A stretch of DNA of 64,000 nucleotides. It comes from Capitulum mitella. Its lineage: Eukaryota > Arthropoda > Thecostraca > Pollicipedomorpha > Pollicipedidae. The DNA lies in the NCBI GenBank assembly GCA_030062745.1, contig CP099839.1:16802733-16866732 (forward strand). Reading direction: 5' to 3'. The position numbers were made by a program, and so were the translations under genes. The notes beneath the pieces are model-generated. The model ran no database searches. It was given only the letters and a program-made list of their open reading frames with translations, and was not told where the DNA came from. Positions 29,401-59,677 of this stretch are shown here, piece by piece (position 1 is the stretch's first letter; every line of letters starts with the position of its first letter).

Positions 29401-32400
29401 GGCCGACTACAGCTCCTTCAGACCCGCCTCCTGGGCTCCTCATCTGGCAGAATACAGCTCCGTCAGATCCGTCTCCTAGGCTCCTCATCTGTCCGACTAC
29501 AGCTCCTTCAGATCCGCCTCCTGGGCTCCTCATCTGACAGACTACAGCTCCGTCAGATCCGTCTCCTAGGCTCCTCATCTGTCCGACTACAGCTCCTTCA
29601 GATCCGCCTCCTGGGCTCCTCATCTGACAGACTACAGCTCCGTCAGATCCGTCTCCTAGGCTCCTCGTCTGGCCCACTACAGTTGGCACGCAGGATAAGG
29701 AAGTACGTGAACCGCAACATGCGTCATATTCACGACCCAATACACCACGCCCTCCCGCCGTCCCGTCGGCCGAGCTGCCAGACGCGCTTCAGCCTGAAAA
29801 GCCACTGGGGCTGGCCGTTATGAGAGACATCGCCCGTGCGACATTCCTTTAGTGCCGTTCGAAGGGGACACTCTCCGAACGGCCGCGTCCCACAAATGTA
29901 GGATGATGCTTCAAAGGCCAGTGCATGCGGCACTCTTTTACTGCCGTCCGGAAGGGGATGCTCTCCGGATGGCCGCGTCATACAACTCTAGGATGATGCT
30001 TCAGAGATTCCCCGGATCTTTGTGGCTAGTTGGATGAGTCATAATCTTCACTGACGCCTAGTCATTTTAACGGCAAAGCCGGGATACATGGACGAAGTCA
30101 TGACCTACTTGGACTCTGATTGTAATGATACTCACGCTAGACCGTTTTTTCCTCCTTCTACTAATGGAAAAAGGAAATTACGAAAAACAGTAATTATCGC
30201 AACGTGTTTTCCATACCAAGACGAAAAACCACCATAATGGACAAAAGGTGTCATATGACAGGTTCACTCACATCAAGAGTACATTTGGACAACTCCATTA
30301 CTCTCGAGTTTCACCCCATAACGGGTTGCTTGATCGTTGCGCTAAAACAACAATTTAACGACTATTTGGTTGGTTTGGAGGCTTCAGGGAAAACCTGATT
30401 GACTAATCGCTCGTAAGTAATTTTAAACTAGCCTGATTTCATAAAAAAATAACTGAAATTAAACTGAACGTGGATCTGCTGTCAATTGGAGCCGACAGCA
30501 ATGAGTAACTAACCTTGGCCATTCTTTGTTGCGAACTCTGGGAGGCGGCTAGCTGCTGCTTCAGCTTTACGATCGTTTCCTGGAGAGTGTGGATGTCTCG
30601 GTCCCGCTTCAGGACCTGAGGGTACACGTCACGGTATGAAACACCGGTTCATTGTTGTAGTCGAGTGAACCTCTCGTGCCTCATACAGTAATATTTTCGT
30701 GACAATGCCTTGTGCGTAGGAACTTCATTGTCAGTAAGGGTGATGCACCGTCAGAGTATCAAAACGTATGTTCTAGTCACGTTAAAATCACGACTGAGCG
30801 TGTGAAAACATTGCCACGTACACGGTTATCAAGCTGGCGACTAGGCACGCAATCAGTTGACCTAAATAAATAGGGCGCTGCAATCCGATGAAAGGATTGA
30901 ACAGACAAATTTCAATGCATTCAAGTACTGGTTTAAGTTGCAACCTCACTGCCACTGCTAAGCTCTGAGTACTCATAGCGACGCAGGGTCGAACGAGAAG
31001 ACTATTGCCATGTCACACAATACAGACAACCCACAAATGATGGTGACCGAGAATCCGACCAGGACAACGTCGGCGTCCAGCCGGACACGCACCTGTTCCT
31101 GGAACATCAGCTCCTGCGACTTTTGGTCCTGGCCCGAGGCCGGCACCTGCTGTGGGGTGGCCGGCGCTGGCGCCTGAGCTGGCGCCGGGGCTGGAGCTGG
31201 CGCCGGGGCTGGCGCTGACGCCGGGGCTGGCGCTGGCGCCGGGTCCGGCTGGGGCGTCGACCGAGCGACGTCCGGCGGAGGAGCGGACGGCTCCACGGCC
31301 GCAGACGGCTTCCTCTTGATTGAGCTGGTCGCCGGGGAGAAGGCAATCAGGTCCTCCTTGGCCACCGACAGCTGCTTCTCGCTCACCCGCGCAATCTCTT
31401 CCTGCTGTGAGCTGGAAAACGGAAACCAAACCAGTGACGACGCTGTCAAAAGATGGTGTGTTTTTAAGTCCCTGTCGAATGATAACGCTTCCGTCGAAGC
31501 ATTTCACAGAGGCGTGACACAGCAAATCACGCCAGGACGTAGCCATGATAGAGACAATTCAGAACTGTCGTTTCATAAGCACACATGGGTCGGTCGAACT
31601 GACCCAAACTGTGATCCACCCCGTTTAGAAAAGGTCTCACCACTAGACTGTGTCGTTAAACCGTATCTCTCAGAGCCAGTTTTACCGGACACGGGCAACG
31701 TGATTCGGATCTTACGGTACGCCAGCGCGGAGTTCTTTCGCGAGGATATCGAGCAAGGGCTGTGAATGGCAAAAACATAAATCATGATTCCTGCGAAAAA
31801 TTAAACCAGTTGAAGCCGCCTGTTTCGTCGAGTTCCTGGCGAAAGCACAAAAGTACAATTCCAGCCGGTTCCCAAGGTTTCACTGCAGGACGTCAGCATC
31901 ACCGGCTTTTATTTGTCCGATTCCTGGTCCGTGGCGATGGTCCCAGAGACGGCCTGTACGGCCAGCAATGGGCCAATGGACCGTCCAGCCGGCGAAGGTC
32001 CGGGGCATCAGTAGACCGTCCAGCCGGAGAAGGTCCGAGCATCAGTAGATCGTCCAGCCGGCGAAGATCTGAGGACCAATGGACCGCCCAGCCGGCGAAG
32101 GTCCGAGCATCAGTAGATCGTCCAGCCGGCGAAGATTTGAGGACCAATGGACCGTCCAGCCGGCGAAGGTCCGAGCATCAGTAGATCGTCCAGCCGGCGA
32201 AGATTTGAGGACCAATGGACCGTCCAACCGGCGAAGGTCCGGGGACCAGTGGACCGTTCCGCTAGCGGAGGTCCGGGGACCAGTGGACCGTTCCGCTAGC
32301 GGAGGTCCGGGGACCAGTGGACCGTTCCGCTGGCGGAGGTCCGGGGACCAGTGGACCGTTCCGCTGGCGAAGGTCCGGGGACCCGTGCACTGCCCAGCTG

Positions 32401-35400
32401 GCGAAGGTCCAGGGACCAGTGGACCGTCCCCGGCCGCGGCGGCGGCCCGGACCGGCCGAGCCTGGAGCCCGGCCCACGCGCCGTCACACCCCGCAGCCCT
32501 CCGGTAAACAGAGCCAGCCAGCCTCCCGCCGACGGCGGCGATCTCGGCGAGCCCATTTCCGGCGCCTACCCTCGTTACCGGGAGGGGGAGGCACACGGAA
32601 AGCGCCATTAGCCGACAAGGCCAGGCTGCAGCCGCCGCAGCCGCCGCGGCCGCCGCCGCCTCGGCCGCCGGCGCCAGGAGTGGTCCGTGCCGGCCAGCGG
32701 CACGGCTAATTGGAGCGGCAAGTTCCCAGCCGGCGGGCGCGTGTGTGGCTGCGGCCCGTCGGCCGGTCGGCGCAGCTCTGGTCTGCCGCCAGGCCGGGGT
32801 GCGGCTCAGAAGGGGGCGGCCCAGCCGAGCAGCTGAGTCAGTCGCGGACGGCGACAATGGCCGCAGGCGGAAGCGGCGCGGCCACCGCCGGCGCCGAGAA
32901 CCGGTGACAGTTGGCTGCACAGCTATTCCGCGGAACTGCGCCACATGCCTCACTGCGCGGCCGTCACGGGGACGTCACGGGCGCCACGGCTGAGCCACAA
33001 CCGTCACGGCGCCAGCGGTGACGTGGCGTCACTGGAGGCCAGGAGAAGCCGTGGCACGGGTTTCTCAGAGAATCGGTAGCCGCCTAAGCGGAGGTGCAGC
33101 CGTGGATGTCGGAAGCCGCCGACATCTCCTGAGGAGAAGCGACCTCAGCTGTGCCGCGACGGCCGTAAACTCTGATCAAAACGACGCTGGAGACGTCACG
33201 TCCATTCAGCGCAGATTACGACGAAACTGGCCCATCGCTGTCGCCGTTTCATTTTGCAAAACGCGGCGGGAGCAATGTAGTTCGCAGTGATACATCTCAA
33301 GAAGATGGCTTTCAAGAGCCGGCCCAGGATCGAGCAGGGTCCACTAAATTTTACAATGGAATGATAACAGATGGCCGCCAATTGAGCAGGCCCGCATTCA
33401 TCACAAACAAAGCACAAAGCGGTGCGGCTGCACCGAACCAGTGCTGCCGTCTTCATCCGAAGTCAGCTGAACAGCGCAGCTCCGGTCCTGATCATCTGAA
33501 CAGAGAGGCTTCGTTCTACACCAGGTGAACAGCGGAACCCTGGTCCAGACCAGACGAGCAGCGCAGGTCCGCAGCTCGGTCTCAGGCGGATGAGCTCTGG
33601 ACTCAGTCGAAGGTCGCCGGTCCAGCTGAGACCAGTGGCCGTGACCGTCCGTCACCGGCGGACCGGTATCGACCGGCCGCGGCCCGGCGCGGCCGTATCG
33701 ACCGCGTCACATCGGCCGCCAGCGGCACTAACGACCGGCCGCGGCCGGCTCAGCGGACAGGGCCGACCATCAGGCCGGCTCCGGTCAGCGGACAGGGCCG
33801 ACCATCAGGCCGGCTCCGGTCAGCGGACAGGGCCGACCATCAGGCCGGCTCCGGTCAGCAGACAGGGCCGACCATCAGACCGGCGCCGGTCAACGGACAG
33901 GGCCGACCATCAGGCCGGCTCCGGTCGGCGGACAGGGCCGACCACTCGACAGGCGACGTCGATCGCCTGAGCCGATGCTCAGGTGATCGACGCCGCCCGG
34001 ACCAGGCAGGGGGCGGTCGGCGGGCGGCGCCGGCGGCCGGCCTTTTGACCGGACGGCGCCGGTCAGCCGCCGGCCGGCGCCGTCCATAAAAGGCCGGCCG
34101 GCGGCGGCCCTGAGTCACCGCCGAGCGGCGCTGCGCGGTCTCGCGTGCCGCGCCGCCGCCGCCGCGTCGACCTTGCTGACCCGGCGGCGGCGTGACCCGG
34201 TCACCGGCCGCGGTCAGTCCAACCGACGTTCGCTCGTCCCACGGCGGCCGTCCCGCGCTGGCCTCTCCGGGTGGTCTGCGGCGGACAGCACGCGACGCAC
34301 TGACGGCGGACGCCGCTCCCGGCGGCCGCCGCCAGCTGCCTGCGGTGCGCCAGACCAGTTCACCCACACTGCGGCACCGAGCCGGGCGGGAGTGGCGAGC
34401 AGCGGCACCGCCGAGGCCACTGCTGCCTGCCGCCCACACTCGCTGCATCGCCGTCACCGGTACGGCCACTCTCACTGCGCGGCGCGACAGTTCAGGCGGC
34501 GGAAAACGCGGCCGAAACGACAGGCGGAACATATCCGCCAATCTGATCGATGCTGTGCCGCAAGCAGCCTTCAGCGGCGAGCGTAGATTTCCTGGAGTAT
34601 CCAAAGTTCCAACGCCCGCAGAGATCGCAGCACGGACACTTTCCCCGCTGACCACGCACACAGACTGCGCGACGCGGCCCTCAACACAGCCAACTCTGAA
34701 ACACAACCACCACAGCGCACAACCTGCAGCCTGCGCCACAGCGCGGCTGTGCCCACCTCCAACGCATGTAGACGAACTCGTCGTCGGCCCTCAGAGACGA
34801 CAGCGTCATGCCTGCAACTGCCGCTCGAGACGCACACTGTCACTCGCAGCGGCCGCCGGGCGGAGCGGCGCGCCTGCAGCGCCGGCACTCCGTGCCGCCC
34901 TCGGTGCAGCTGCGCTCGCGTGCGCCGCGCCGGCCCACCGCGCCCGACTGCCGGCCGGCCGCCGCCGCGCCGCCGCACTCAGCTGGCGCGCCGCGTCGCC
35001 GCGGCCGCGACCAAAACACGCGCCCGCGCGCCGCGCGCGACGTCCGGCGCCGCCGGCACTGGCGGTGGGGCGTCCCCCCACCGCGTCGTCAGCGGCTGGC
35101 GCCGACTGATGACGAGGCGGGGATGCCCGTGGATGGGTCCCACCGTTCAGCGGGATACCCAAGGGTCTGCGGGAGGCGCGATGTCGCGGCCCAGGAGAAG
35201 CTGCGTGGTGGATCGTCCAGCGACAGCCGGCCGTGATCGCTGCCGAGCGCGCGCATTCCCAGTCGCACGGCCCGCCGACCCCGCGGTGGCCTCAGCACCT
35301 GCGCCGGCAGTGCACAGGTGCAGCCAATTGCCGCCGGCTGTTCCCAGCGCTGCGCAGCGGCAGGAAGCAGGGGTCGGGCGGCGACGCAGCCCCGCCACCG

Positions 35401-38400: not shown

Positions 38401-40413
38401 CACGTGCGGCACGCGCGCCGAACAAAGGAGCCCTTCCGACCGTGGCGGCGAGCCGTCAGACAAATACGCACGGCAAACACAAACACGCCCACCCAAACAC
38501 ACAGCGCCGCGATCTCGTGCCCTCTCATTCATGCCGCAAACCGCACACTCGCGTCCGCTCCGGGGACCTCCCGGGAGATCGATACCACCCGGAGAGAACC
38601 ATGCTGCCTCCGCACACCAACCTCGACATCGGCGCCGACCGCGCACGCTGAGAGCCCGTCATCGGCTCGTTGGACCCGACCTGGCCTGGCCTCGGGCCGG
38701 TCGACGCTGGCCCTAGAGCGTGTCCGGTCGCAGACAGGCGCGCGCCGCCCGCCGTCTCCCCCACACCGCCTCGGGGCAACTGGCCGCGCCGGCCGTCGAC
38801 GCGGTCGATGAGCCGATGACGTCACCCGCCGTGCCGTCGGCCGCCGGCCGAGCGGGCTGACACGCTTTCGGCGGCCTGGTACACTTCCTGGGTGCGGCCG
38901 GGCGCCGCCGATATCCGACCAGCGGCGCCGCTCAGCGCACGGCGGGCCCGCTCAGCGGACTGTTCAGGAGCGCAGCGAGCTGCTCAGAGCACAGAGGAAC
39001 CGAGCGTAGCACAGACAGCCGCTGAGGAGCACAACGGACTGTTCAGGAGCACAGCCCCCGATCAGAGGACAGCGGGCCGCTCCGGGCACAGCGGCCGCTG
39101 AAAGCACAAAGGGACCGCCTCGAGCACAGCAGGCCGCCGTGGATGAAGGCCTGGCGGACGGACAGACGAGTCACAGGGACGCCCGCAGACGGCCGCTGCC
39201 ACAGCCGGGAGGACGGCCAACTCAGCCCGTACTGACGTCGCCGCTGTCGGCCGGGGACCGCGTAACGCCCGCGTGATGGCTGGAGACCGAGTGACGCCGG
39301 TGTGACGGCCTCCCTGGACGGCCGTCTGGCGCGACCGCCTCCGACCGCAACGGGGACAAGGTCGGAGCAGGGCCGGGGGCGGCGGCGCCGGGCCGCCAGC
39401 CGCAGGACCTGCGGGACTCTGGGACTGGCTGGGCCACGGACGCCGACAATCTGCTTCCTCACTGTGGCCACAGAATAGATTTAAAAACGGGGATGGAGAC
39501 GAAGAATACTCCTCTAAACTATGTAGGCTTCTGAGACTATTTCAAGGCATAGATAAGCATTCACCTTCAACATTCGCCACTTGTTCCATCAACTTTTCTA
39601 GGATTTCTTACTATGCCTAAGAACCGAAAGGCTACGCAGTATTCTCAGTTCCTGGCTTTAATCCGGGATGCACTCTTTCTGTGGTATCAGGGCTTCTAAG
39701 TCTCCGTCTGCTGCCGAGCGAGACCCCGGTGTGGCGGATACACAAAGAGGAAAGGCTGTGGAAGTGGCGAGAGCACTTGCTGACCGAATCATGGCGCACA
39801 GCACCCGGCCAGAGCCCAATAAGCTTTCTATACTGGCGCACCTTCCTCATAAATGTTATCTACAGAGAATCAGCACATTTCGCAGGACTATGTAAGCTTC
39901 ATCCGGTTGGGACCACTCGCGTTCCAATGAATTATTACGGTCCGAGCATAGGCTGCCATCTGTCGACGAAATGGTGAAACAGAACCCGACAGTTCGTGCC
40001 GGCGCTCTCGAGCACCGCAAGGCCGCTCGTCCCTATCAAGGGCGAGGCCAGTATCCAGTTCAGGAAGGACACAACTGCATGTTACCGACTACCGAACAAC
40101 ACAAATTATAAACTTTGCTCCATAAATTCTTTATCTGTTACGGCCCAACTGAAGCAAGTTTCCCATACACATTGAGGCAAACTCAGCTGGAATATAGTTA
40201 ACGGGCAACGAACGGAAACAGGTTTTAAGTACAACTTCCGCTTCCAGTGCAGATCCCGTCAGTGATCACAAACGGTTCATCACGTTACCTGGTCCTTGCT
40301 TCTGCTTATGATGTTGTCAGCAAAGAATAGATCCAAGACCGGCCAAAAGCGCATGCCCCGAAAATTCTCATGGTTAAGAGACATTGGTTACTCATAAATT
40401 TTGATGACACGAA

Positions 40414-40457
<44 letters not shown>

Positions 40458-40854: not shown

Positions 40855-40892
<38 letters not shown>

Positions 40893-49800: not shown

Positions 49801-52800
49801 GGCCGGACGAAATACACTGCACGCACGCGGCTAACTGTTGCCTTTAGGCCAATTTACATGAGGGTTCATTTTGCCGTGGCGGCAGGGCGACCGCGTCCCA
49901 CAACAGTTGACAGGGGTTATCCCGTGTTTCCTTACGTCATACATGTGTCGTGATTCGTCAAAGCTGTGGTCCCGCCAGCCCTGCTCGAATACGATAACTC
50001 AAAATATTTAATTCGACCACGGCAAACTGAAATCTTATGTTTCCCGCAGTGCAGTAGGCTTCGACTTGTTGATCTGTCGCGCGATAAGCCTCCGAGTCCA
50101 AGAGATCGCTGATTGGCGCAAATGCCATACATACGTCATAAAACGTCATCAGTCGTCACCACACGCAATAGCGAGACAAAGGCGGCCGTCCCAGCGGCAG
50201 AACTGAGTGCGCCTGCGCGTTTTCGCCCCCGCCCCCCCGTGTAAGCTGGCTTTACGCGCCAACACGCATACATCGCAGCTCGTGCACCTAGAGCGCTGTG
50301 CACGCCGCCGGCCTGCAGCGCCGGTCTCTCGGAAAAGTGTGTGAATGAGGATTTGTCGCAGCCCTGGGGCATGAACATCCAGCACGCCACACAGATCCGC
50401 GGCAGCGGCCGCTATCCGGGCGCCGGTTTTCGGGCCGGCCCGGCGTGCGGGCATCCGTCAGGCGCGGCTGCGCAGCCACCAGCCGGCGGACGATTCCGCG
50501 CTGTCGGGATCCATCAGCGGGGCCCGGCGCTCCGACACATTCGTGACTCATCAGAGAGTCATGGTGGCGGCGTGGGCCGCTGACATGCGCCGGCTGGTGT
50601 TTGGGGTCAGGTGGCGCCGCCAGCCGGGCCGGGACGCCGCAGCTGCGGCTCGGCTCAGCCATACTGGGGCGACAGACACTGGGCGAACGGGGACCGGTCG
50701 TGGTGACCTCGGTTCTTCGCGGACTCACGGATGACTGAACGTGAACGCGAATTAGAATTACCGCAACACATTTCCTCAGATCTGCATGCATTGCAGGAGA
50801 CCCAAGGCTACAAATACATACATGACACCTGAGGTTCGATACCAAACCGGGCACAGATCAGCCACCAGGACGTGCTGGCCGTCGTTAAAAGCACCCGTCA
50901 CCGCTGCGATTTCCCTGCGCGCCGTCGCGGGCGCCGCCTGTCCCGAATGCCTGACGACGCCGGCCGTGCGGCCTGTCAAGGACACGAGCCGCCCGGCGGC
51001 ATCGATCGGGAGGCGACTGTGCACCGGACGGCCCGGGCCTGGCCCCGAGTCGGCTGCACACTGGCCAGGTGTGCGGGGGCGGCAGGCACAGCAGGGCCGT
51101 GCCGACACCGCTGCCTGTCGCGCCGTCGGCCGGCGCCGGGTGACGTCACCCGTAGACGGCGGCCGGTGACGTCACGGCGAGCCGACAAAAACCGGAGGCG
51201 GCTGTCGCTCGTGACGCAGCTGGAACAACGGGAAGCCGACTGCACCTGCGGCTGGCCCCACGGGCTATGTCCTCTTGTGCAAACGTCATTTGCACGATGA
51301 CGAACAAGCGCAGGCAAGAAAAGCGTCAGAAAGCCGAGCTTTCACTGTTCACGGAAACACTGCCACCTGAACGGAACCTGACAGGAAGGCTGGCACCAGT
51401 CGACGGGTTCAGCAGTCAACTATACGGTGCGGAGGGTTTCCACATCGCCGTCTCCAATTGGCGAAAGTGGCGCTGACGGGTGCCCACGATGTTCGGATCC
51501 TGGCAGGTTGCCAGACCGACGGTACTGAGTCACGACAGCTGGATAATGGTGTCAGAAATGTTTCCAACAATGACTCGAAACTCTGCATCTCTAATCAAGC
51601 AGATGTCGACATTCTGCATGCGACTGACTACTTAAGTCCGGCTCCCAGAGAAACGTTCCCGACGGCAGACCAAGACAGATGACGGCGTACCGACTACGTG
51701 TCGGTGCGCCGCGTATTTCATGCAATGCTTTGGCTGGCTGCCTATCAGGTTCCTGAATGACGTCATTGCGATGACCTTGAGCCTCGTGACTGTACAGCCG
51801 TGCGATGGGGAGCGCTGAGTGACTGTTTATTAGTCGTCGTGCCAGACAAAGGACCAGCAGCCGGTTATCCAGACTCCATTCAGATTGTGAACAACTGTAT
51901 TATGAGCGCCGTCTGTCCAATGCAACGAGCTATACATACGGTCATAGGAATATGTGTCATTTGAACAGGATTGCTGCTCAAGGCAGGGTGACCTGCTCAG
52001 AAGTGTGAGGCAGAAACTGCAAACAAACACAACCATCATAGCAAAGCCCCAATGATCTGATATTGCCATACTGTATACCGAGGACGCTGTACCAGAACCA
52101 ATGTTACCAACACGGAAGACGCATTCCTGTGATCAAGGTTACCTTCCATGGACGGCTGAAAATTCAGGTCACATCCCACCCAGCAGGGACGTCACCACGG
52201 TAGGGGAGGGGGGCCTCTTCGGACCGAACCCTCCCTGGATACTTGACGCGTTGTCCGTTCCCCGAGCGTGGTCCGGCGCAAAAAAAAAAAACACCTTGCT
52301 GCTGCTGTGATAAAACCGCATGGAATTCGCGTTGCTAACAGTGAAGATGCGTTCAACAAACTTGCAAACAGGCTGAACTGCGCAACAGGGTGAATTCGAC
52401 AGTCCACGGACCGCTCGGATTACGGCTAAGACGGTTTAATCGACGCCTCGTCACTCTGACGCTTGCAAGGGCACCTCTGACATGCACCCTCTCACAGGCA
52501 TCTCTATACGCTGGCTACGAACGTCAGCAGGGGTAAACAAGTCCAATTCTGACTGATTCTGATTCTGTTAAGACTTTTCCATGTCAGGCTCTGCAGGGCC
52601 TTCCTGCCATTGCAAAGACAGCTTCAGCATGTAAATCGTCGCACGCCACGATGCTGTCCCTCATCCGTGTCAAACATGCATCTCTGCGCAAGGCATTACA
52701 ACCACCCACGTGACTAACAGCGCCCCCCGGCTGGTGGCCGTCCGGTCCTGACTCACCGTTTCGATCTGTCGCTGGGAGCGACGTCGCGCCGGGCCGGCCT

Positions 52801-55800
52801 GAAATCACGCCGCGCCGACAGCGAGCCGGCACCGGCAGTCGGCACCAGACCGTTCCCGTTTCCGTTCCCGTTCCCGTTCTCGGTCAGCAGATCCACGACA
52901 GACGTGTCCTGAAAGACTGGACGGGGGGCTGGAGTCAGAGTCAGACGCGGATCCGGGGGGGGGGGGCGATGGGGGCGACCGCCCCCCACGCCTGAGAAGG
53001 GGTTCCGCTCAGACTCAAAAAGGGCCCAGAAGGGGCCCGATATCAGCTTTGCGTGGTCTCTGTGAAAACGCGACGGGTTGTTGATGCAGTGTCGGGGCCT
53101 CTGGGAGGGTTAGATGACCGCTGGGATGCACTGAAGAGTTCCTAGAACTCCCAAAGGGCCTCAAGACGGCTCCAAGATTGCCCCTGAGGCCACCAGAAGG
53201 GTCAAAGGGCCCCTGAGACGGCCAAGATAGGGACTGAGTCCCTAGGACGGTATTGGGGACCCTGGAATGTTATAGAGGGCCTGAATGGGATTCACGGACC
53301 TGTGTGAAAGGCTGAAGGTTCCTGATGCAGTCAGAGAGCCTCCAGGAGCGTCAATGAGACCCTGGACGGCAAGATGGTTTCTAAGATGGACAGAAGGGTC
53401 CCTGGAACTCTCCAAGGGTCCCTGGGACCGCAGGAAGGGCTCCAACACGGCAAAGGGTCCATGAAACCGCGAAAAGTGCCAAAGAGGCCCCTGAGACGGC
53501 AAGAACTTAGGAGGGTGCCTAGCACGGCATAGGGAGATACTGGCTAGCTAGAGTGGCCCCCTAAGCAGGGATTCATCAGTGACCTTCTCAACATCAAGGG
53601 GGCCCCCAAATGGACTACACTGGTCCTTTTGTGAACCTAAGGGGTTCTTGATGCAGTCAGGGGGCCCCAGGAAGGTCAGGTGGGTCCTGAGACGGCAAGA
53701 TGGACCCTTACACGACCGGTGGCCCCTGAGACCAGCAAAAAGGTCGGAGGGCCGCCTGCAAGGCAAAGAAGACAAGAGAACTTCTCGGACGGTATGAAGG
53801 CCCTGGACGACCAGAGGGCCCCCGAGTGTGTTAGGCGGGCTCCTGCCACGGAAAAAATCCCATTGGTACTGCCCGTGAGGCCCCTGAAGCGCCAATAAAG
53901 GCCTCTGATACGGCTAGAGACGCCCTAAGTCTGCCAGATATATCCCATGTAACAGAGGAAGGTCCCTGATGCTGTCATAGAGACCACCGGAGACGTTCAG
54001 ACGGCCCATGACACTGTACAGGTAAAATCACAAAGAAGGTCTTTTGTACTTGTCGGTGGGTTTCTGAGACGGCCAGGATGTTCCTCAGAGACGACAAGAG
54101 GGACATCTAGGGCAACATTGGTTCCCTGCAACTGCTAGAGAGGGGCCCTTGAGATTGTTAACTAGCATTCTCAAGCAACAGGGGCCCGTGAGACGACCAA
54201 AGGGGCCCATGAAACTACTATACCTTGATACGTCCAGACAGCTCCTGAAACGGCCGAAGGACATAGAACACTGCCAAAAGTTCCTCCGTCAGGACAGACA
54301 GAAACTTACAGAGGGCTCTTGATGCTGCCTGAAGGGCTCCTTAGACGGCAAAAATTCCCCAAGAACGACAGGAGGGAACCCGAGGTGGCTTAAGTGCCCC
54401 TGAAACTGCGAGATGGGTCCATGAAACTGCCCGAGATGCCCCTGAAACCGCAAAAGGGGCGCCTGAGACGTCACGAGGGACACGTGAAACTGCAATGGAA
54501 AACTTAGACCACTAGAAGGCCTTGACATGGCAGCAGTAGCGTCGAAACCTCTGATGAGACGAGGGGTAAACGTGATTTTTACCAAGTCTCTTTTCATGCA
54601 CCGCCATAAGGTTAATATTAAATGTTGCTCAAAGTGGACAGGAGGACAGCTGCCCCCTGCTCCCCCTCCGTTCCTACGTTCCTGCACGGCAGACGGCCCG
54701 AGACCACCAGAAGTGTCCCTGTAAATGCAAAAGGAAACCTAACCTAAGCCAGCAAAAAAGGTTTCAGAAACTACCAGGGGCAGAGGGGCTCTCGGACCAG
54801 ATGTAGACACGATGCTTCAAACAGAGGGAGGAACGCAGGCGTCTAAAATCCCGCCGCTTTTGTCACATTTCGGCCGCTTTGAAGGGGAAGAAAACACACA
54901 ATTTTGTCAAATAAGGTGACGCTCTTGAATTTTTTTCGGGTTCTTTACATGACAAAAAAAAACGCCAAATTACATCAAATGTTTTTCACTGGACCCGAAA
55001 AGATCAACGCTTTTTGTCTCTGAAGAACGAGAAATGGGGGAGCCCCCGGCGGAAGAGGACCCCGTGCTGACCATTCGCACTCCCTTAGCGAAATCCTGGA
55101 TCCCCTGAGCCGTCATACAGTCCAGGGTTGCTAGGGTGTTTCCTCAGGATAAGAAACCTTCTCTTTCAGCCATACTCCATAAGCTCAGCGTGAAATCCAC
55201 GAACAACGGGATCCAAAAGACTCAAACCCCCTTATCTCTATCCATGCTCAAGGTCACAACTACGTTCACCGGAGCCCCTGACGCCTTTGCAGGTATGCGC
55301 AATGAGAAAGTAGTGTGTGACCACGGCGGTCAGTTTAAACCTCTTTAACTGGCACAGTCATTCAGAAACTACATTCGACTGAAAGTACTCATATCAGGCA
55401 GCTGACTTCGCACGTTTATCGATCGGCCATGGGTGAGAGAATGAAACAGGATACTTTTTTCACAGGGTTGGATTTATCCGATACTTTGCTGCGAGGTATG
55501 ACCACTGAGTCAGTGCAGGCAGGACTGCGTAATAACGTACAACATTCAGAACATTTGTCAGTGCTCCACATGCAAAATATTTTAGTTGGAAACAGCCCTG
55601 TACATTAACTGCGGTATACCTTACCTTACCTACCTCATACGTGGCAAAGATATGGGACAAATGCATGAGCGTAGAAATGGGGGCAAACAGATGTCCCCAC
55701 TTTTTTGGAAGTTTCACATTAGTCCTGTGGGAAAAAACATCTTTGGCTCCCCACTTTTTCTGTATGCTCCTACGTCCTAGACAAATGACATGTATCGTTG

Positions 55801-58800
55801 CGCAGCCTGATACAAGCTGTTGTGCTTGAAATTGTAACCGGCTTGCACATCTTTAAGTTATGGCACGAAATCCATCCTTCTGTCTGTTTACGAACCGCCG
55901 TGCACTTTTCACTTACATTCCGTAGCTGGATCCAGGAGGTCTTCGGGTAGCAGCGCCACCTCTGGGCCCGCTTCTGAATCTCTGAATCCACCTTTTACCG
56001 GCGCCGGCGCTGAAAATAACGTGATGGCTGCAGTCATGCAGGAAACAACCGAATACTGACATAGAATGACCCGCTGCAAAGTTAAAGCAGGGAAAGGACC
56101 ATAACATGATACCAGGTATCAGACTGTCTTCATATCACAACCTTGACGAAAGATACTGCTTGCTGGGATGCCGCTAGATGCCTGAGAACTATGTAATATG
56201 TATTATATAGTTACCCCATAATTTTGCAAATCAGTTATTGCGACATCTTTCTCAGTTTTCGTGCAAACTGCAGGAGAACATCTTAAGACATACTCATAGA
56301 GCTGCAGTACCTCCATAAATACATCAAAAGTAATTCAGCAACATTTCGTTAATGCTTAACGTTAGAATTTTATCGTTTCAACACTTCACAGCCTCACATG
56401 TTACGAATCGATAGACGTTTAATGGAATCGTGAGGCGACCAGGTTATGGTTTTCGCCGGTTTCAAATCTCTCTCAGGTTTGAAACCGCAATTACATATTG
56501 TGCGGAAACATTGTAAGAAAAAGAATATTAAATCATGTGAGCTTAACTACTTCACTACTTAGTTCAGCTAGCGTCGCTTTTTTATCTTTAAAAGTTCCAG
56601 CTAGGCAGCGGAAACGTATGCTTGCCTTCATTTCTGTTACGTGTTTGTTTTGTTAGTCGTTCTATAAGTATTTAGATAGCCTCCTCGATTTTCTTTTGTT
56701 TACTAAGGGTGTCAAATGCTAATGCTTCCATGCTTTATCAGTCGTTAGAGCCTCTATCTGTGTATTCGTGTTGTGCTGCGTGAGTTGTTTCAAATGCTCC
56801 TTTTTGTGTCAGAATTTTACTTTCGTGACCTGAGATTAATGAGCACAAAAAGAGGTGCCCTGAAGCACCACGTACCTTTGTGTAGGTGTAGGTTGGCAAA
56901 CACTGAGGGCAAAGTTTAACCCTATTCCCGGAGGGCTAGACGGTATGGTTGATTCCCGGCAGGGGGGCGGATTCGGCCCCCCGTGAGATCTCGAGAACTA
57001 CTTGTCCGATTTCATCGCAACAAACGGCAATCGATTTGCCGTGACGTGAACTACATTTTTATAAAAAGAAATTTTCATAATTTTGAAATTTGTGGATACA
57101 GGGGGGCAAAAAGGTCAAAATGGGGGATACTTTTGGACTTCTTATAACTCCGTTGTTTATCGACCGATTTCGATGAAACTGGCATCAATCGAGAGATTAT
57201 GGATAGGGCTTTTACCATGGGTCCGCAAATGTGAAATTTTGAGAAAATTCATGGGCGTTCACAGGGTTTCAAAAATAGGAGGATTAGTTTTCTAACAGCT
57301 GAATGAACAAAAGAGGCAAAGACCCTTTTTTGGCTTCTGCTAGACATGTTATACTAAAGAAGTACAAATCGCATTACAATGTTTGTATAATGTTAGCATA
57401 GGCGGTGCCAGGGATATGAAAAAGGGGAACTGTCACGGTCACACTTTTCTCAGATCAACTTGTGACCTTTGACCTTAAATGACCTCCAGTGACCTTGGGG
57501 TCACTTGGAATGATCTCGTGTGCATTTAACATTATCTTTAAACGTTTTCAATCATTTGAATTCACTCTATTTCAAAAATTTCATTTTATGGCTATTGCGA
57601 TAAAGGGTACGCGCACTGACATTTTAGGTCATATCTCCGTGACCCGACCTGATACCAAGCTGAAACTTGGTACACAAGTAGAGGGCACCTTTCTACGTCA
57701 TATATATTCCGAGTTTGGCATTTGAAAAAAATGGCGCCGAAATTATAGCGAAAAAACAAATTTTAACTTTTGACCTTGACCTGACCTTGTAAAATGACCT
57801 CAGATAAACAAAATTATATCTGCACATTGCCCAGCTATTTAGCTATACATTCATATAAAGTTTTAAGTTCTAGCTTTAAAACTCTGTTTTTGGGAGACAT
57901 TTTCCTTGTACCCTGAACATGGCCAAAAATGGCATGAGGTGCCTCCCAAAAACGTTGCCTGGCTCCGCCCCTGAGAAAAATAGAATTTTGAAATTTTGTC
58001 ACAGCACGTAGAAAGAATAGCTAGGAAAAGTCACCAAGTTTCGTGAAGCTGCGTTAAAAATCCTGGAATTGGCAAGCAAAAAACCTGAGGGGGGCGGATT
58101 CCGCCCCCCTGCCGGGAATAGGGTTAAAGGGTGCACATTCAGAGTGAGATCAGATTGCTATTCCGGAATGGGCAGTAGACTGAACGTCCTGATGTGTGAC
58201 AAATCATAAAAATCATTAATAAGCATTCAGTTGTAATGGACAGTTGGATAAGTGTGCGCGGCAGGACTCTGTTTGTTCATTTGAGGACAACAGAACTGAT
58301 TTCAACCAGTCCAAAAACCCAAATAAGTACATTTTACAAACCGAAAACTTTGAGCAGTACCAAAAATCCGGACCTTGCTGAGGCTGCAAAGCGTGTCTCG
58401 GGGGTAAAATGGAAGTAAATGATAAAGCTGCTCTGTAGAAGTGGATGGATTTCGGGTCTGATACAATCTCGGCGTACTTTTATTACTTTTTTCTTGTACT
58501 TGACGTGTTTTTTTATAACAAACATATTCTTTGAAAGCGCTTAGAGGAACGCCACAGACCTATTAGGTGTTACATGATTTACTGGCTTAGACGAATTAAA
58601 ATGTAACGCTCAGCTACCTAAGCACATATATTTATAGTGCTACTGATATCTATGCATACCTTGGCCTGTCGCTGGCGCATGCGTTATGTTGGGAAGCTCT
58701 CTTCTGATGATCAACGCTTTACCCTGCGTCTTCCGAAACGTGGACGCGTTGCAGTTGCCCTCCTCGTCGAAGGCGACGCCGCCGCGGGCCCTGGCCGCGT

Positions 58801-59677
58801 CGCCGGGCCTGGTCGTCGGTCGCCGGTCGTCCGGCCGGCCTCCTCGGGGCGCCGCGTCCGTGCCGCCACCACGCCCGTCCGGCGAGGAGCACGGCCCGCT
58901 CGGCCAGCGGTGGTTGTTGTTGAGCGAGCAGCCGTCCTCGGCGGCCGTCCTCGATGAGGACGCCGCGCGGGAGGACCTCTGTGCGGGCGGGGTCTGCCCG
59001 GCTGAAGACGGGGCGAGCCGCCGCTGCCGCGCCGGCGAGCCCGTGGTCAGTCCGGGCGCGGCGCCGCCGGCCGGCATCCGGTTGAAGTTGGGGTCTTCGG
59101 TGGGCACCATGTCTGCCGACGCGCGGTCGGCAGGCGGCGCCGCGTCGGCCGGCTCGACCGGAGGCTTCAGCTGCGGCAGGGACTTCTGCGCGGGTCGGCC
59201 CGGCTGCTCCTGCCGCCGCAGAGGAGAGCCGATCCTGGAGACGGGCGGCACAGCCCGCGACGGGGTGGTGCAGACAGGTATCTGGCGCCGGCCTGCCGCG
59301 GCCGGTCGGGAGGCGACGCTGGCCTGGGCAGCGGCTGGTCGGGAGGCGACGCTGGCCGGGGCAGCGGCTGGTCGGGAGACGGCGCTGGCCGGGGCAGCGG
59401 CTGGTCGGGAGGTGACGCTGGCCAGAGCAGTGGCCGACAGCCGCGGAGAGGCCTGTTCGTCCCCGGCCTCCGACTGGCGGCCTCTGCCCGCTGCAGCTGC
59501 CCGCAGCGGGGGGAGTTTGGACTTGGGACTGGGTCCGGGGGACGACGGAGGACTCGCCTGGGTCACAAGCTTAGTCGAGAATGAGGTTATGCTTTTCCCG
59601 TCAATTTTGTTCACAAATTCCCGATTGTACGTTTTTCTAGGAGACGACTGTGCCTTTTCAGCCCTTGCTTGTAGCAT
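23263..59677 (-). CDS. TACC: TACC family centrosomal coiled-coil protein, whole gene model
   Basis: TACC proteins sit at centrosomes and spindle microtubules. The C-terminal coiled coil (TACC domain) recruits XMAP215/ch-TOG polymerases, and Aurora A regulates the family. Here the last five exons join in phase into about 190 residues of coiled coil. Family hallmarks in order are FADLHRKYEKSK, EQQRYDMLQQYAEE and the terminal ICDELIQKMG, close to vertebrate TACC1-3 as I remember them. Two alternative 5' parts reach the same acceptor: exons at 59677-58723, 56009-55917 and 52928-52757 (about 705 aa in total), or one exon at 48825-46259 (about 1154 aa in total). Introns run from 0.5 to 21 kb. The family call rests on the 3' exons; the 5' parts are attached by phase and splice-site match only. 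Further exons in the large introns, or upstream of 59677, cannot be excluded. Confidence 0.88.
23490..23660 (+). repeat. GATTC-rich degenerate repeat, intron side 1
   Basis: Repeats of AATCGATTCGATTCTGATTC and variants. A similar tract occurs at 24440-24620 in the same intron, and a short one near 52.54 kb. Confidence 0.65.
23774..24016. mobile_element. 243-bp MITE with CGTAGCCAGG inverted ends
   Basis: Left end GCAGGGACGTAGCCAGG (23774-23790) and right end CCTGGCTACGTGCCTGC (24000-24016) are inverted repeats with one mismatch. There is no coding capacity. The superfamily cannot be assigned from the ends alone. It lies in the last TACC intron. Confidence 0.7.
24440..24620 (+). repeat. GATTC-rich degenerate repeat, intron side 2
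   Basis: Same motif family as 23490-23660 (AATCGATTCTGATTCAG-type), here beginning with CTGAATCGGAATTTGGGAAT. The two tracts may be the decayed ends of one element or a scattered simple repeat. Confidence 0.6.
25059..25208 (-). CDS. TACC: TACC coiled-coil exon (YEKSK...QQRYDML...YAEE)
   Basis: A 150-nt exon entering and leaving in phase 2. The acceptor is GTCGCAG before 25208. The donor is CAACG|GTCGGT at 25059, which is weak but forced by phase. It encodes KYEKSKALMAENK through EQQRYDMLQQYAEETMQ. This lines up with the vertebrate TACC block RYEKMKEVLEG ... EEQRYQALKVHAEEKL. Reading on past the donor loses the coiled-coil pattern, which supports the splice. Confidence 0.9.
25743..25900 (-). 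CDS. TACC: TACC coiled-coil exon (VAERHTQ...FADLHR)
   Basis: A 158-nt exon, phase 0 in and phase 2 out. The acceptor GGCCTGCAG precedes 25900 and the donor is CATCG|GTCAGT. It encodes 52 residues from VAERHTQALARL to ANIETMFADLH, and its last codon is split. Joined to the next exon it gives FADLHRKYEKSK, the equivalent of FSDLFKRFEKQK / LADLFRRYEKMK in vertebrate TACCs. It is regular heptad coiled coil throughout. Confidence 0.9.
26575..26790. repeat. 66-bp tandem repeat, about 2.5 units
   Basis: Units start GGACACACAACTCTCTCCTC, run through GGCGGCCAACAGTG and end CTGGAGGGG(C/T)GG. Two full copies near 26.62 and 26.69 kb are nearly identical, and a third is truncated near 26.75 kb. It is intronic. 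Confidence 0.85.
27448..27535 (-). mobile_element. Dispersed short element family M, copy 1 (partial)
   Basis: On the minus strand: GGACGTAGGAACAGGGGG, later GGGGCCATGGCCC, then ACTTTTTTGAAGTTTCACAT and TAGCCCTATGGGG. The same order of motifs occurs at 44866-44990 and 55664-55785, and partly at 54600-54685. Probably a non-autonomous DNA element; its complete ends are unclear. Confidence 0.55.
27985..28215. repeat. 31-bp GC-rich minisatellite, about 7 units
   Basis: CAGAGACGAA recurs every 31 bases (27995, 28026, 28057, 28088, 28119 and on), followed by GGCGCGGC. Flanking DNA to about 28.25 kb is CpG-rich. It is intronic. Confidence 0.88.
29125..29690. repeat. 45-bp tandem array, about 12 units, with 90-bp higher-order part
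   Basis: The unit contains CCTCCCAGGCTCCTCATCTG, GACTACAGCTCCTTCAGATC and CG. The right part (from about 29.43 kb) alternates two unit types in an exact 90-bp repeat (CTGGGCTCC...CTCCGTCAG / CTAGGCTCC...CTCCTTCAG). As 45 is a multiple of three, the minus strand stays open with a 15-residue period, but there is no sign of an expressed exon. Confidence 0.9.
29838..30010. repeat. 88-bp repeat, two units, each with a hairpin
   Basis: Two copies share GCCG(T)(T/C)CGAAGGGGA(C/T)(A/G)CTCTCC, GGCCGCGTC and TAGGATGATGCTTCA. In each, an arm such as CCGTTCG pairs with CGAACGG around GAAGGGGACACTCTC. Confidence 0.7.
30514..30615 (-). CDS. TACC: TACC coiled-coil exon, N-terminal part of the TACC domain
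   Basis: A 102-nt, 34-codon exon with both ends in phase 0. The acceptor is TACCCTCAG before 30615 and the donor is GCCAAG|GTTAGT. It encodes VLKRDRDIHTLQETIVKLKQ and onward to QQRMAK, a coiled-coil start like the EEIVKK...YEKTIAQM stretch of vertebrate TACCs. Both neighbours are phase-compatible. Confidence is high as an exon and slightly lower for exact homology. Confidence 0.85.
31093..31411 (-). CDS. TACC: TACC shared linker exon with Pro-Ala repeat
   Basis: A 319-nt exon, phase 2 in and phase 0 out. The acceptor TTTTCCAG precedes 31411 and the donor is GAACAG|GTGCGT at 31093. It encodes SQQEEIARVSEKQLSVAKED, LIAFSPATSS, a basic KRKPSAAV patch, then about 35 residues of Pro-Ala repeat and QKSQELMFQEQ leading into the coiled coil. 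Its phase-2 entry accepts both alternative 5' ends. The KQLSV...IAFSP stretch may correspond to the conserved RKQSLYLKFDPLL-SP segment before the TACC domain of vertebrates; that is inference. The Pro-Ala tract is simple-sequence DNA and probably varies in length. Confidence 0.82.
31977..32445. repeat. 34-bp minisatellite with 68-bp higher-order left half
   Basis: GGACCGTTCCGCTAGCGGAG and GTCCGGGGACCAGT repeat every 34 bases (32251, 32285, 32319, 32353). Left of about 32.24 kb, related units alternate as a 68-bp pair (CCGAGCATCAGTAGATCGTC / GAGGACCAATGGACCGTCC). It lies in the 14.8-kb TACC intron. Period 34 is not a codon multiple, so the open frames across it are chance. Confidence 0.9.
32446..33700. 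other. GC-rich intronic block, no gene supported
   Basis: CpG-dense DNA with long open frames on both strands, as expected at this base composition. No conserved domain, and no splice pair of convincing quality, was found. It could hold an unrecognised promoter or non-coding first exon. Confidence 0.4.
33739..33955. repeat. 35-bp minisatellite, about 6 units
   Basis: GACAGGGCCGACCATCAGGC plus CGGCTCCGGTCAGCG repeats every 35 bases (33791, 33826 and on) with few mismatches. Confidence 0.9.
33960..35720. other. Very GC-rich CpG island inside the large intron
   Basis: About 1.7 kb of dense CG/GC sequence with overlapping open frames on both strands (up to about 300 codons). None has a recognised domain, and codon content follows base composition. 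Best read as an island, possibly an internal promoter, not a gene. Confidence 0.45.
35800..36240. repeat. Degenerate GACAGGCGGACGGGCGGATG / ACAGACAG low-complexity tract
   Basis: Successive short units of GGCGGACG(G), then ACAGACAGACA-rich sequence. There is no constant long period. Confidence 0.7.
40417..40451. repeat. TA microsatellite
   Basis: Nearly pure alternating AT over about 35 bases, followed by further TATATATG. Confidence 0.95.
40857..40889. repeat. CT microsatellite
   Basis: About 16 uninterrupted CT dinucleotides. Confidence 0.95.
42955..43345 (+). pseudogene. PIF/Harbinger (HARBI1-like) transposase fragment, broken
   Basis: In one frame, RRQERRRRRAWMRARLR...EWW-type residues and RWPENCRMSRVSFRKPC match the N-terminal region of Harbinger nucleases (pattern W..NFRMS...F..LC). 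After a frameshift near 43150 the next frame continues IRMPINLEARVPMALYYLAG followed by YGEYSHREPI. This is the family's RV.vALwyLA...Y+ block. It is then interrupted by a stop near 43290, and an FG-V-like remnant follows. The catalytic DDE part is absent. It is a dead DNA-transposon relic within the TACC intron. Confidence 0.72.
43690..44060. other. CpG-rich block in the intron
   Basis: GC-rich with GGCCGGACGGGCCGG-type short repeats near 43.79-43.82 kb. There is no supportable exon. Confidence 0.4.
44866..44990 (+). mobile_element. Dispersed short element family M, copy 2
   Basis: GAACAGGAGGGCCATGAACC, ATTTTTTGGAAAATTTAACG, TCTCTGGGGAGAAAAGTC and TTTGGCCCTCCACTC occur in the same order as in the copy at 55664-55785. 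Confidence 0.55.
45020..46150. other. GC-rich island next to the large alternative exon
   Basis: CpG-dense at 45.03-45.5 kb, then mixed DNA. Overlapping open frames on both strands reflect composition. There is nothing recognisable and no phase-matched exon. Confidence 0.4.
46259..48825 (-). CDS. Large alternative first coding exon, 855 codons, probably TACC short-promoter isoform
   Basis: This is the longest open frame of the window. I start it at the ATG at 48825 (MAARGAAARDG), which has G at -3 and +4; an in-frame stop lies at 48870-48868. A donor CGGAACAG|GTGGGC at 46259 leaves phase 2, which exactly fits the acceptor at 31411 and gives MQRNSSQQEEIARV. Unspliced, the frame would stop at 46150. 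The protein is low complexity and rich in Ser, Arg, Pro and Ala. It has three RxNT(F/Y) plus acidic motifs near residues 71, 201 and 249, a Q-P repeat at 239-248, NLSEILERASRRRSG in the middle and an acidic region before the C-terminal end. I recognise no domain. It could instead be a separate gene, but no other acceptor partner was found. Confidence 0.7.
49154..49163 (-). promoter_or_regulatory. TATA-like box in the CpG island of the large alternative exon
   Basis: On the minus strand the sequence reads CATAAATAC, about 330 bases upstream of the ATG at 48825, within a GC-rich, CpG-dense island (about 48.85-49.75 kb). Transcription would then start near 49.13 kb with a 5' leader of about 300 bases. 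This is a motif-and-position call only; a TATA-less island promoter is equally possible. Confidence 0.4.
49200..52756. other. Upstream CpG islands and spacer, no gene supported
   Basis: Islands at about 49.2-49.75 kb and 50.2-51.3 kb have open frames only of compositional type. The second carries two TGACGTCA palindromes 26 bases apart. From 51.3 to 52.7 kb the DNA is ordinary spacer with a 12-base A-run at about 52.28 kb. Confidence 0.45.
49352..49359. promoter_or_regulatory. TGACGTCA (CRE-type palindrome) in the promoter island
   Basis: A perfect CREB/ATF consensus about 200 bases upstream of the TATA-like box of the large exon. Further perfect copies lie at 51141-51148 and 51167-51174 in the next island. 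Confidence 0.5.
52757..52928 (-). CDS. TACC: TACC long-isoform exon 3
   Basis: A 172-nt exon, phase 1 in and phase 2 out. The chosen acceptor ends GACTCCAG before 52928, and a second one (GTCCAG) lies 9 nt inside in the same frame. The donor AAACG|GTGAGT at 52757 is near consensus. It encodes PRPVFQDTSVVDLLTEN, a five-fold NG repeat, then ARRDFRPARRDVAPSDRSK. The exit phase matches the acceptor at 31411. No domain is recognised; the exon is called from splice signals and phase. Confidence 0.68.
53030..54530. repeat. 1.5-kb degenerate tandem array
   Basis: Dozens of variants of AGGGCCCCTGAGACGGCAAG, GGTCCCTGAAACTGC and CATGAAACCGC at about 25-40-base spacing. It is an old, strongly diverged minisatellite, beginning just upstream of the exon at 52928-52757 and filling much of the intron. 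Confidence 0.75.
54600..54685 (-). mobile_element. Dispersed short element family M, copy 3 (end only)
   Basis: On the minus strand GGAACGTAGGAACGGAGGGG, GAGCAGGGGGCAGCTGTCC and CTTTGAGCAAC correspond to the start of the family, then similarity fades. Confidence 0.45.
55664..55785 (+). mobile_element. Dispersed short element family M, copy 4
   Basis: GAGCGTAGAAATGGGGGCAA, AGATGTCCCCACTTTTTTGG, AAGTTTCACATTAGTCCTGT, AACATCTTTGGCTCCCCAC and GCTCCTACGTCC. The outer motifs GCGTAG(A)A and CTCCTACG are inverted relative to each other, suggesting short terminal inverted repeats. Confidence 0.6.
55917..56009 (-). CDS. TACC: TACC long-isoform exon 2
   Basis: A 93-nt exon, phase 1 at both ends. The acceptor is GTTATTTTCAG before 56009 and the donor is GGAAT|GTAAGT at 55917; both are strong. 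In phase it reads APAPVKGGFRDSEAGPEVAL, then LPEDLLDPATE, with no stop. The other two frames give poor or interrupted peptides. It is phase-compatible with the flanking exons on both sides. Confidence 0.68.
56916..58127. mobile_element. TTAA-flanked non-autonomous element, subfamily A copy 2 (inverted)
   Basis: A 1204-bp body between TTAA at 56916-56919 and 58124-58127, with the same 12-bp ends CCCTATTCCCGG / CCGGGAATAGGG as the copy at 17.8 kb. Reading from its left end (GAGGGCTAGACGGTATGGTT) matches copy 1 read from its right end, so the two are inverted. The nested GGGGCGGAGCCAGG block and the AGGTCA cluster (TGACCTTTGACCT at 57463-57475) are present. It lies in the intron between the exons at 59.7 and 56.0 kb. 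Confidence 0.85.
58723..59677 (-). CDS. TACC: TACC long-isoform first recognised coding exon
   Basis: 318 codons plus one base (phase 1 out), from ATG at 59677 (MLQARAEKAQSSPRKTYNRE) to donor CGCAGG|GTAAAG at 58723. The product is basic and Pro/Ala/Ser-rich. Four copies of an 11-residue repeat (SRPAAAPASVA type) lie near residues 90-128. DPNFN at 195-199 resembles the DPNFNPF-like motifs of vertebrate TACC N-terminal regions, and FDEEGNCNASTFRKTQ ends the exon. An in-frame stop lies 33 nt upstream. A pyrimidine-rich run ending GTGGAG directly before AATG could be an acceptor, so the true start may be on an exon further upstream. Confidence 0.65.
59290..59425. repeat. 33-bp tandem repeat inside the first long-isoform exon
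   Basis: GGTCGGGAGG(C/T)GACGCTGGCC plus GGGGCAGCGGCT, about four units. It encodes the SRPAAAPASVA repeat on the minus strand. The period keeps frame, so length changes would be tolerated. Confidence 0.85.

What the first reader, a model, noticed from the sequence alone, without database searches (positions are those of the whole stretch)
31411..59677. Two alternative N-terminal arms for one TACC coiled coil
Exons 52757-52928 and 46259-48825 both end in phase 2, and both fit the single phase-2 acceptor at 31411. One predicted product is about 705 aa with a Pro/Ala-rich arm; the other is about 1154 aa with an unrelated Ser/Arg-rich arm from its own CpG-island promoter. That would let one locus make two centrosomal adaptors with different cargo or location.
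Basis: partly seen in the sequence, partly recalled or inferred. Interest (0 to 1): 0.75.

Follow-up and report, generated by a model that had tools for sequence, protein, structure and literature searches.

The report
TACC gene with three alternative starts
One gene for a cell-skeleton (microtubule) scaffold protein, in what is probably a barnacle, appears to have three separate beginnings that all lead into the same coiled-coil tail, and an older second copy of the gene keeps the same layout.

Summary
The minus strand carries a TACC gene (tail matches Pfam TACC_C, 4.2e-19). Exons A2 (ending 52757) and B (48825-46259) both leave two bases over and fit the acceptor at 31411. The decisive evidence is a paralogous TACC locus on another contig of the same genome. 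It keeps the order A1-A2-B-tail on one strand. Its B exon is homologous by colinearity (chain score 250; 0 of 400 shuffles reach it; z 5.9 against -0.7 to 2.4 for seven control pairs) and ends in the same phase at a strong donor. An identical CArG decamer lies 507 and 504 bp upstream of the two B starts. The locus most likely makes three TACCs of about 695, 1154 and 316 residues. Weak points: no RNA was seen, arm A rests on weaker evidence and a poor A1-A2 acceptor, and 'CpG island' discriminates little. Alternative TACC promoters are known in mammals; the arms and their conservation here are the new part.

The parts
58660..59677 (-). Exon A1: start of arm A (ATG 59677; end either 58660 or 58723, same phase). 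Its 5' side has a strong acceptor at 59837, so the A promoter probably lies further upstream
   Evidence: Open frame and coding score; acceptor 59837 10.0 bits, rank 16 of 3621. Match to the A1' frame of the C8 copy: phmmer 16.2 bits against at most -43.8 in 500 shuffles, but pairwise and chain tests (z 1.8-2.8) do not exceed the A1-against-B' control
52757..52928 (-). Exon A2: end of arm A, phase-2 donor at 52757; acceptor 52928 or 52916 in frame with A1, stronger 52908 out of frame
   Evidence: Donor 10.0 bits rank 5 of 3989; RPVFQDTSVVDLLTENGNG resembles RPAVFQDATELDQLAEHGDG in the C8 copy, E 0.054 on its own, whose donor is 10.1 bits and, counted from the printed coordinates, also phase 2
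49323..49332 (-). CArG box CCATATTTGG, 507 bp before the B start codon
   Evidence: Same decamer 504 bp before the B start of the C8 copy; it occurs once on this strand in each region
49352..49359 (-). CRE-like palindrome TGACGTCA, 27 bp upstream of the CArG box; none found within 1.1 kb upstream of the C8 B start
46259..48825 (-). Exon B: alternative first coding exon, 855 codons, Ser/Arg-rich arm, phase-2 donor at 46259
   Evidence: homologue in the C8 copy: colinear score 250 against at most 205 in 400 shuffles, z 5.9 against controls; no acceptor of 5 bits or more at 48820-49700
34757..34809 (-). Exon D: third, short alternative first exon MTLSSLRADDEFVYMRW, phase-2 donor at 34757 (7.0 bits)
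   Evidence: 46 of 53 bases identical to the C8 copy, changes by codon position 3/0/4, 60-base flanks 32% and 35%; blastn E 2e-12; alignment
31093..31411 (-). Exon C1: common exon that receives all arms; linker
   Evidence: C8 counterpart STQQGESAPG..., same phase
30514..30615 (-). Exon C2: coiled coil
25743..25900 (-). Exon C3: TACC coiled coil
25059..25208 (-). Exon C4: TACC coiled coil
   Evidence: Pfam TACC_C on the raw frame 6e-05
23263..23431 (-). Exon C5: end of TACC domain and stop codon (23265-23263)

Best explanation
The locus is a single TACC gene with three alternative 5' ends. Transcripts begin (i) upstream of 59.84 kb and carry A1-A2, (ii) just upstream of 48.8 kb and carry the large exon B, or (iii) near 34.8 kb and carry the tiny exon D. 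Each start ends two bases into a codon and is spliced to the same acceptor at 31411. Three proteins of about 695, 1154 and 316 residues thus share a linker and the 192-residue TACC coil. The coil would provide dimerisation and docking to the TACC partners, and the arms, low-complexity and probably disordered, would set localisation, phosphorylation and scaffold behaviour; the D form is little more than the coil. The CArG box in front of B suggests that the B form is switched on by an SRF-type factor, perhaps in contractile or cytoskeleton-remodelling cells. Shown here: the exons, the phases, and their conservation in a paralogous locus. Inferred: transcription starts, junctions in RNA, disorder, tissue and function.
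For: TACC tail: Pfam TACC_C 69.5 bits and TACC3 chain 5lxn by phmmer, E 0.0011, third of eight matches. A paralogous TACC on contig C8, coil 108 of 192 identical, with five tail exons placed by homology. In C8 the same order A1'-A2'-B'-D'-C1' on one strand. B and B' form a colinear chain scoring 250 (0 of 400 shuffles, maximum 205); repeated with controls, z is 5.9, against -0.7 to 2.4 for seven control pairs (reversed sequences, other arm, wrong-frame, antisense and intron decoys). Their N-termini align from Met to Met (of 14637 segment pairs 2 score as high, one of them the observed pair itself). B' ends at a 10.7-bit donor (rank 8 of 6107) with 2 bases over and reads into C1' without a stop. 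Same CArG decamer at -507 and -504. Exon D conserved exactly from ATG to donor and phase 2. Of 416 intron frames (20 residues or more) between B and C1 compared with the C8 intron, six matched at E 0.01 or better: the D frame (2.7e-8), two antisense frames of the same segment, and three elsewhere at 1e-4 to 0.004. No Pfam match at E 0.1 in 31.4-46.3 kb in six frames except a plant-family match below its cut-off.
Against: No RNA evidence. B against B' fails ordinary tests: tblastn with composition correction finds nothing; phmmer scores -79.3, below the best of 500 shuffles (-66.1) and close to the B-against-A1' control (-84.9); pairwise alignment scores are about 3 standard deviations above shuffles, the highest of 200 shuffles exceeds the observed score in both modes, and a control pair that should be unrelated (A1 against B') reaches z 3.4. 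The C-terminal anchor is unremarkable (626 of 14637 control pairs as good). The one DNA match inside B (46919-47060, 70%) lies off the protein chain's diagonal. Homology of B and B' does not by itself prove splicing to C1, because a nested gene would have been duplicated too. The C1' acceptor is weak (2.2 bits). Four polyA-like hexamers lie between B and D and a fifth between D and C1. Strong splice-like sites occur inside B (donor 48138, 11.4 bits; acceptor 47737, 9.5 bits).
Confidence: 0.85

Rival explanations
1. Exon B is part of a separate gene nested in the TACC intron, on the same strand, ending before 31.4 kb.
For: B has its own apparent promoter and an unrelated sequence. Duplication of the whole locus would keep a nested gene in place. 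polyA-like hexamers lie between 46 and 31 kb.
Against: Coding signal stops at the 46259 donor and the 35 codons after it score negative. In C8 the frame also ends at a strong donor of the same phase. Among candidate exons with sites of 4 bits or more between 46.1 and 31.45 kb, leaving out those that run into C1, the best phase-compatible internal one scores 21.8, the best phase-compatible terminal one 14.1, and the best internal one of any phase 37.0, against 95.7 for C1. The only clear conserved coding block between B and C1 is D, which has no AG of 1.5 bits or more at its start in C8 and only a 1.9-bit one in the window.
Confidence: 0.1
2. The large exon, or its part after acceptor 47737, is a cassette exon spliced between 52757 and 31411, as the 5.3-kb exon of human TACC2 is.
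For: By coordinate arithmetic, acceptor 47737 (9.5 bits) is in frame with both 52757 upstream and B downstream. TACC2 has such a large optional exon (PMC8087818, introduction read).
Against: The start Met region and the CArG box of B are conserved and no acceptor of 5 bits or more lies at 48820-49700, which points to a first exon. AG at codon positions 1-2 is common in Ser/Arg-rich coding sequence, so in-frame acceptors are expected.
Confidence: 0.15
3. Exon A1 does not belong to TACC, and B or D forms are the only real products.
For: A1 leaves 1 base, but the best A2 acceptor (52908, 7.6 bits) needs 0. Only weak acceptors (3.4 and 3.8 bits) fit, and the two A1' donors of 5 bits or more in C8 leave 2. 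By pairwise and chain scores A1 is no closer to A1' than to B'.
Against: By phmmer A1 matches A1' (16.2 bits) and not B' (-71.7); A2 has a counterpart in the same order; and the A1' frame carries two YNLDFL...DDPNF(N/D)PF repeats like those of TACC proteins (recalled resemblance). An undetected small exon between A1 and A2 would resolve the phase.
Confidence: 0.1

Closest known systems
Human TACC1 alternative-promoter and splice variants (PMC8665927, passages read)
   Same: Alternative promoter events in exons 1, 1a, X5 and 1b; many transcript variants, classed as long and short isoforms
   Different: Vertebrate locus. No Pfam domain was found in arms A and B of this locus; similarity to the TACC1 N-termini was not tested
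Human TACC2 with intronic promoter p10 and an optional 5.3-kb exon (PMC8087818, abstract and introduction read)
   Same: Intronic promoter, one very large exon upstream of the TACC domain, variable exons confined to the N-terminal side
   Different: There the large exon is described as the 4th exon; here B looks like a first exon with its own start codon and a CArG box shared by both copies
Drosophila TACC (PMC11804907, passages read)
   Same: Arthropod TACC; [quoted passage not shown]
   Different: Only isoform PA was seen described; whether the fly gene has arms like B or D could not be compared
C. elegans TAC-1 (mentioned in PMC11804907)
   Same: Lacks the disordered N-terminal region, as the predicted D form largely would
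   Different: There it is described as the protein itself; here it would be one of three products

Membership tests
TACC family | C-terminal TACC coiled-coil domain above the curated Pfam score | tested here: met
   TACC_C 69.5 bits, cut-off 29.9, covering profile positions 7-201 of 201; two copies found in the genome (best candidates only)
TACC family | Domain at the very C-terminus, variable low-complexity N-terminus | tested here: met
   Domain at residues 105-292 of the 299-residue spliced tail; no Pfam domain in the arms
TACC family | Binding to ch-TOG/XMAP215 and Aurora A, centrosome or spindle location | not testable with these tools
   needs experiments
Gene with alternative first exons sharing one acceptor | Several start exons with the same donor phase, fitting one acceptor | tested here: met
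   A2, B and D all phase 2 to C1 in the window; B and D joined in frame to C1 also in C8
Gene with alternative first exons sharing one acceptor | Separate transcription starts seen in RNA | not testable with these tools
   no transcriptome held
SRF-regulated promoter | Conserved CArG box near the start site | tested here: inconclusive
   Identical decamer at -507 and -504 from the start codons in the two copies; found post hoc among eight patterns; binding not tested; motif names recalled

The most novel reading that the evidence does not exclude
Before the duplication that produced the two loci, possibly the barnacle whole-genome duplication, TACC already had three promoters, giving a canonical arm, an SRF-driven Ser/Arg-rich arm B for contractile or remodelling cells, and an almost bare coil D that could compete for partners. 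The coil would then work as an exchangeable dock with regulated full-length, specialised and minimal versions.
Probability: 0.3. Interest if true: 0.6.

Novelty: new variant of a known kind. Interest (0 to 1): 0.5.

Why it matters
TACC proteins link Aurora A and a microtubule polymerase at centrosomes and spindles (established knowledge, recalled), and their N-terminal arms may govern scaffold behaviour. A locus that attaches three very different arms to one coil, and keeps that arrangement in two diverged copies, offers a natural arm-swap series for asking what the arm contributes. It also suggests that the alternative-promoter layout known from mammalian TACC1 and TACC2 occurs in what is probably a crustacean.

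Tried and rejected
Pfam and PDB sequence searches of the arms gave no homology (Pfam; PDB: B only), so the arms could not be named. CpG-island evidence was set aside because CpG observed/expected is near 1 throughout. Rfam gave nothing at gathering scores. A plus-strand gene in the GC-rich 31-46 kb stretch was considered because of long open frames; no Pfam match in three frames. A genome-wide search for B relatives away from TACC was asked many times and never answered, so it is open. Structure prediction of the arms was not possible (machine full). The genome search with the Pfam TACC model reported no match, not even this locus, presumably because it is split over exons. One Pfam match in the intron frames (BES1_N, a plant family, below its cut-off) was treated as chance. 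Pairwise alignment scores were dropped as a test of arm homology because an unrelated control pair did as well; the chain test with controls replaced it. One further DNA match in the compared introns, 48 bp at 45284-45329 in opposite orientation (E 6e-4), was not pursued. The literature searches listed nothing on alternative TACC starts in crustaceans; only PMC-licensed papers are held and I saw only the top rows (20 of 104, 15 of 29, 3 of 3, 10 of 15, 10 of 160, 8 of 78, 8 of 18, 8 of 158).

Full report
What is there. The window lies at C1:16802733-16866732 of a 477,042,490-base genome in 16 contigs; C1 is 45,521,341 bases. These figures are close to the published goose barnacle Capitulum mitella (16 chromosomes, longest 45.43 Mb, PMC8416341, passages; another assembly of 478 Mb is mentioned in PMC11331182, passages), so a barnacle, perhaps that species, is my inference. 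On the minus strand the exons 31411-31093, 30615-30514, 25900-25743, 25208-25059 and 23431-23263 join in frame into a tail that matches Pfam TACC_C with 69.5 bits (cut-off 29.9). Phmmer against the PDB also found TACC3 (5lxn, E 0.0011), third among eight matches, the others mostly to the Ala/Pro-rich linker.

Exon A2 (donor 52757, 10.0 bits, rank 5 of 3989) and exon B (48825-46259, donor 8.0 bits, rank 29 of 3989) both leave two bases, and the acceptor at 31411 (10.4 bits, rank 12 of 3621) takes one. A second acceptor, 31471 (8.1 bits), also fits the phase but scores lower (68.3 against 95.7). The B product is 1154 residues; the A product is 695 (or 691 with acceptor 52916), not about 705. The arms are not similar to each other (best BLASTP E 5.1). 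Splice scores come from a simple matrix written from recalled metazoan frequencies, so ranks matter more than values.

Is B coding, and does it end at 46259? Its frame is open for 905 codons; 300 second-order Markov sequences of the region reached at most 672. A codon model trained on the TACC tail plus arm A, not B, gives B 169 bits and the 35 codons beyond the donor -19.6 bits. A retrained model (tail plus A1) puts the best end at 46261, while a model trained on the tail exons alone fails to recognise B. Among acceptor-donor pairs of 4 bits or more between 46.1 and 31.45 kb, leaving out those that run into C1, the best that fits the phase scores 21.8, and the best of any phase 37.0, against 95.7 for C1.

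The decisive comparison. A search of the same genome with the coil found seven matches: the four coil exons here, and three on contig C8. I fetched 100 kb there; 5,000 bases read N. In coordinates of that stretch, minus strand, the copy has five tail exons that could be placed by homology, with a coil of 192 residues of which 108 are identical to this one. Upstream, in the same order, are a frame with YNLDFLDDPNFNPF-type repeats that matches A1 by phmmer (16.2 bits against at most -43.8 in 500 shuffles), an A2-like exon (RPAVFQDATELDQLAEHGDG, E 0.054 alone) with a 10.1-bit donor, and a 903-residue frame. That frame, B', ends exactly at a 10.7-bit donor (rank 8 of 6107) with two bases over, as B does.

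Are B and B' homologous? Standard tools say no: tblastn with composition correction finds nothing, phmmer gives -79.3, below the best of 500 shuffles (-66.1) and close to the B-against-A1' control at -84.9, and pairwise scores are only about 3 standard deviations above shuffles, with the highest of 200 shuffles exceeding the observed score in both modes and an unrelated control pair (A1 against B') reaching z 3.4. A test of colinearity is clearer. The best chain of ungapped matches scores 250, against at most 205 in 200 local and 200 full shuffles. Repeated with controls, B against B' has z 5.9 (0 of 200 shuffles); the seven control pairs have z -0.4 and -0.6 (one sequence reversed), -0.2 (B against A1'), 2.4 (A1 against B'), and 0.6, -0.7, 0.7 (wrong-frame, antisense and intron decoys against B'). 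In the same test A1 against A1' has z 2.2, no better than the A1-against-B' control, so arm A rests on phmmer, order and A2. The B chain includes MAARGAAARD/MLARGVSGRD at the two start codons, RADRVNLSEILERASRRRSGR/RVGRRDLDEILERAARRRSSR, SSPDL, and a segment ending SSGRSNS/SSGRSSS. Single matches alone are not significant (18 of 200 local and 6 of 200 full shuffles reach the top one). The N-terminal anchor is unusual (of 14637 segment pairs 2 score as high, one being the observed pair), the C-terminal one is not (626 of 14637). One DNA match lies inside B (46919-47060 against 20091-20230, 70%, E 9e-5), off the diagonal of the protein chain.

A shared promoter element. The CArG decamer CCATATTTGG lies 507 bp before the B start here and 504 bp before the B' start; each minus strand holds it once, among 7 CArG-type sites here and 9 there. 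The search was post hoc, eight patterns having been looked at. A CRE palindrome beside it was not found upstream of B', and the surrounding promoter DNA is otherwise not clearly alignable.

A third start. The intron between B and C1 has one clear conserved coding block: 34754-34810 against 15370-15426 of the C8 stretch, 88% identical, E 2e-12, of the order of coil exons C3-C5 (82-91%). It encodes MTLSSLRADDEFVYMRW here and MTLSSLCADDEFVYVRW there, runs exactly from ATG to a donor (7.0 and 7.5 bits), and leaves two bases. Of 53 bases 46 agree; the 60-base flanks agree at 32% and 35%. The AG just before it here scores 1.9 bits and C8 has none of 1.5 bits or more there, so it looks like a first exon. 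Joined to 31411 it gives a 316-residue TACC. Of 416 intron frames compared, six matched at E 0.01 or better: this exon, two antisense frames of the same segment, and three elsewhere at E 1e-4 to 0.004.

What remains uncertain. A1 leaves one base, but the strongest A2 acceptor (52908) needs none; only 52916 and 52928 (3.4 and 3.8 bits) fit. The C8 copy has a tandem acceptor at the same place, and its A1' donors of 5 bits or more fit neither, so a small exon between A1 and A2 may be missing. The acceptor of C1' is weak (2.2 bits). There is no RNA. Whether the two loci come from the barnacle whole-genome duplication (PMC11331182) was not tested by synteny.

How it probably works. The shared coil would give dimerisation and partner binding. 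Arm B is rich in Arg and Ser, with 8 sites of the form [KRN]R.[ST] not followed by Pro, against 1 in A and 1 in the tail, as its composition would lead one to expect. [quoted passage not shown] elegans TAC-1 lacks it; the authors caution that in-vitro behaviour is not strong evidence (PMC11804907, passages). I infer that A, B and D forms differ in scaffold strength and placement, with D as a minimal or competing form and B under SRF-type control.

Compared with what is known. Human TACC1 has several alternative promoters (PMC8665927, passages), and human TACC2 has an intronic promoter and a 5.3-kb optional exon (PMC8087818, abstract and introduction). The kind of arrangement is therefore known; the arms, the minimal start and their retention in two diverged copies were not seen in the rows listed by the searches made.

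Noticed in passing
   Followed up: yes
52908-52916: Two acceptors 8 bases apart at the start of A2, also present at the same place in the C8 copy (26192 and 26200 of the fetched stretch). They give different frames, so the choice would matter.
   Followed up: partly
47737-48138: Strong splice-like sites inside exon B (donor 48138, 11.4 bits; acceptor 47737, 9.5 bits) bounding a 400-base stretch that would shift the frame if removed.
   Followed up: no
17842-19059 and 56915-58127: About 1.2-kb repeated element in opposite orientations, with further copies in the right flank (L001) and in the C8 stretch; transposon-like. A second repeat lies at 9134-10347 and in the left flank (L002).
   Followed up: no
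29145-29682, 31973-32429, 61385-61877: Minisatellite-like tandem arrays (periods 45, 34 and about 20-119).
   Followed up: no
59075-59098: Arm A1 here has EDPNFNRM, while the C8 copy has two full YNLDFL...DDPNF(N/D)PF repeats: the two copies may have divided this function between them.
   Followed up: partly
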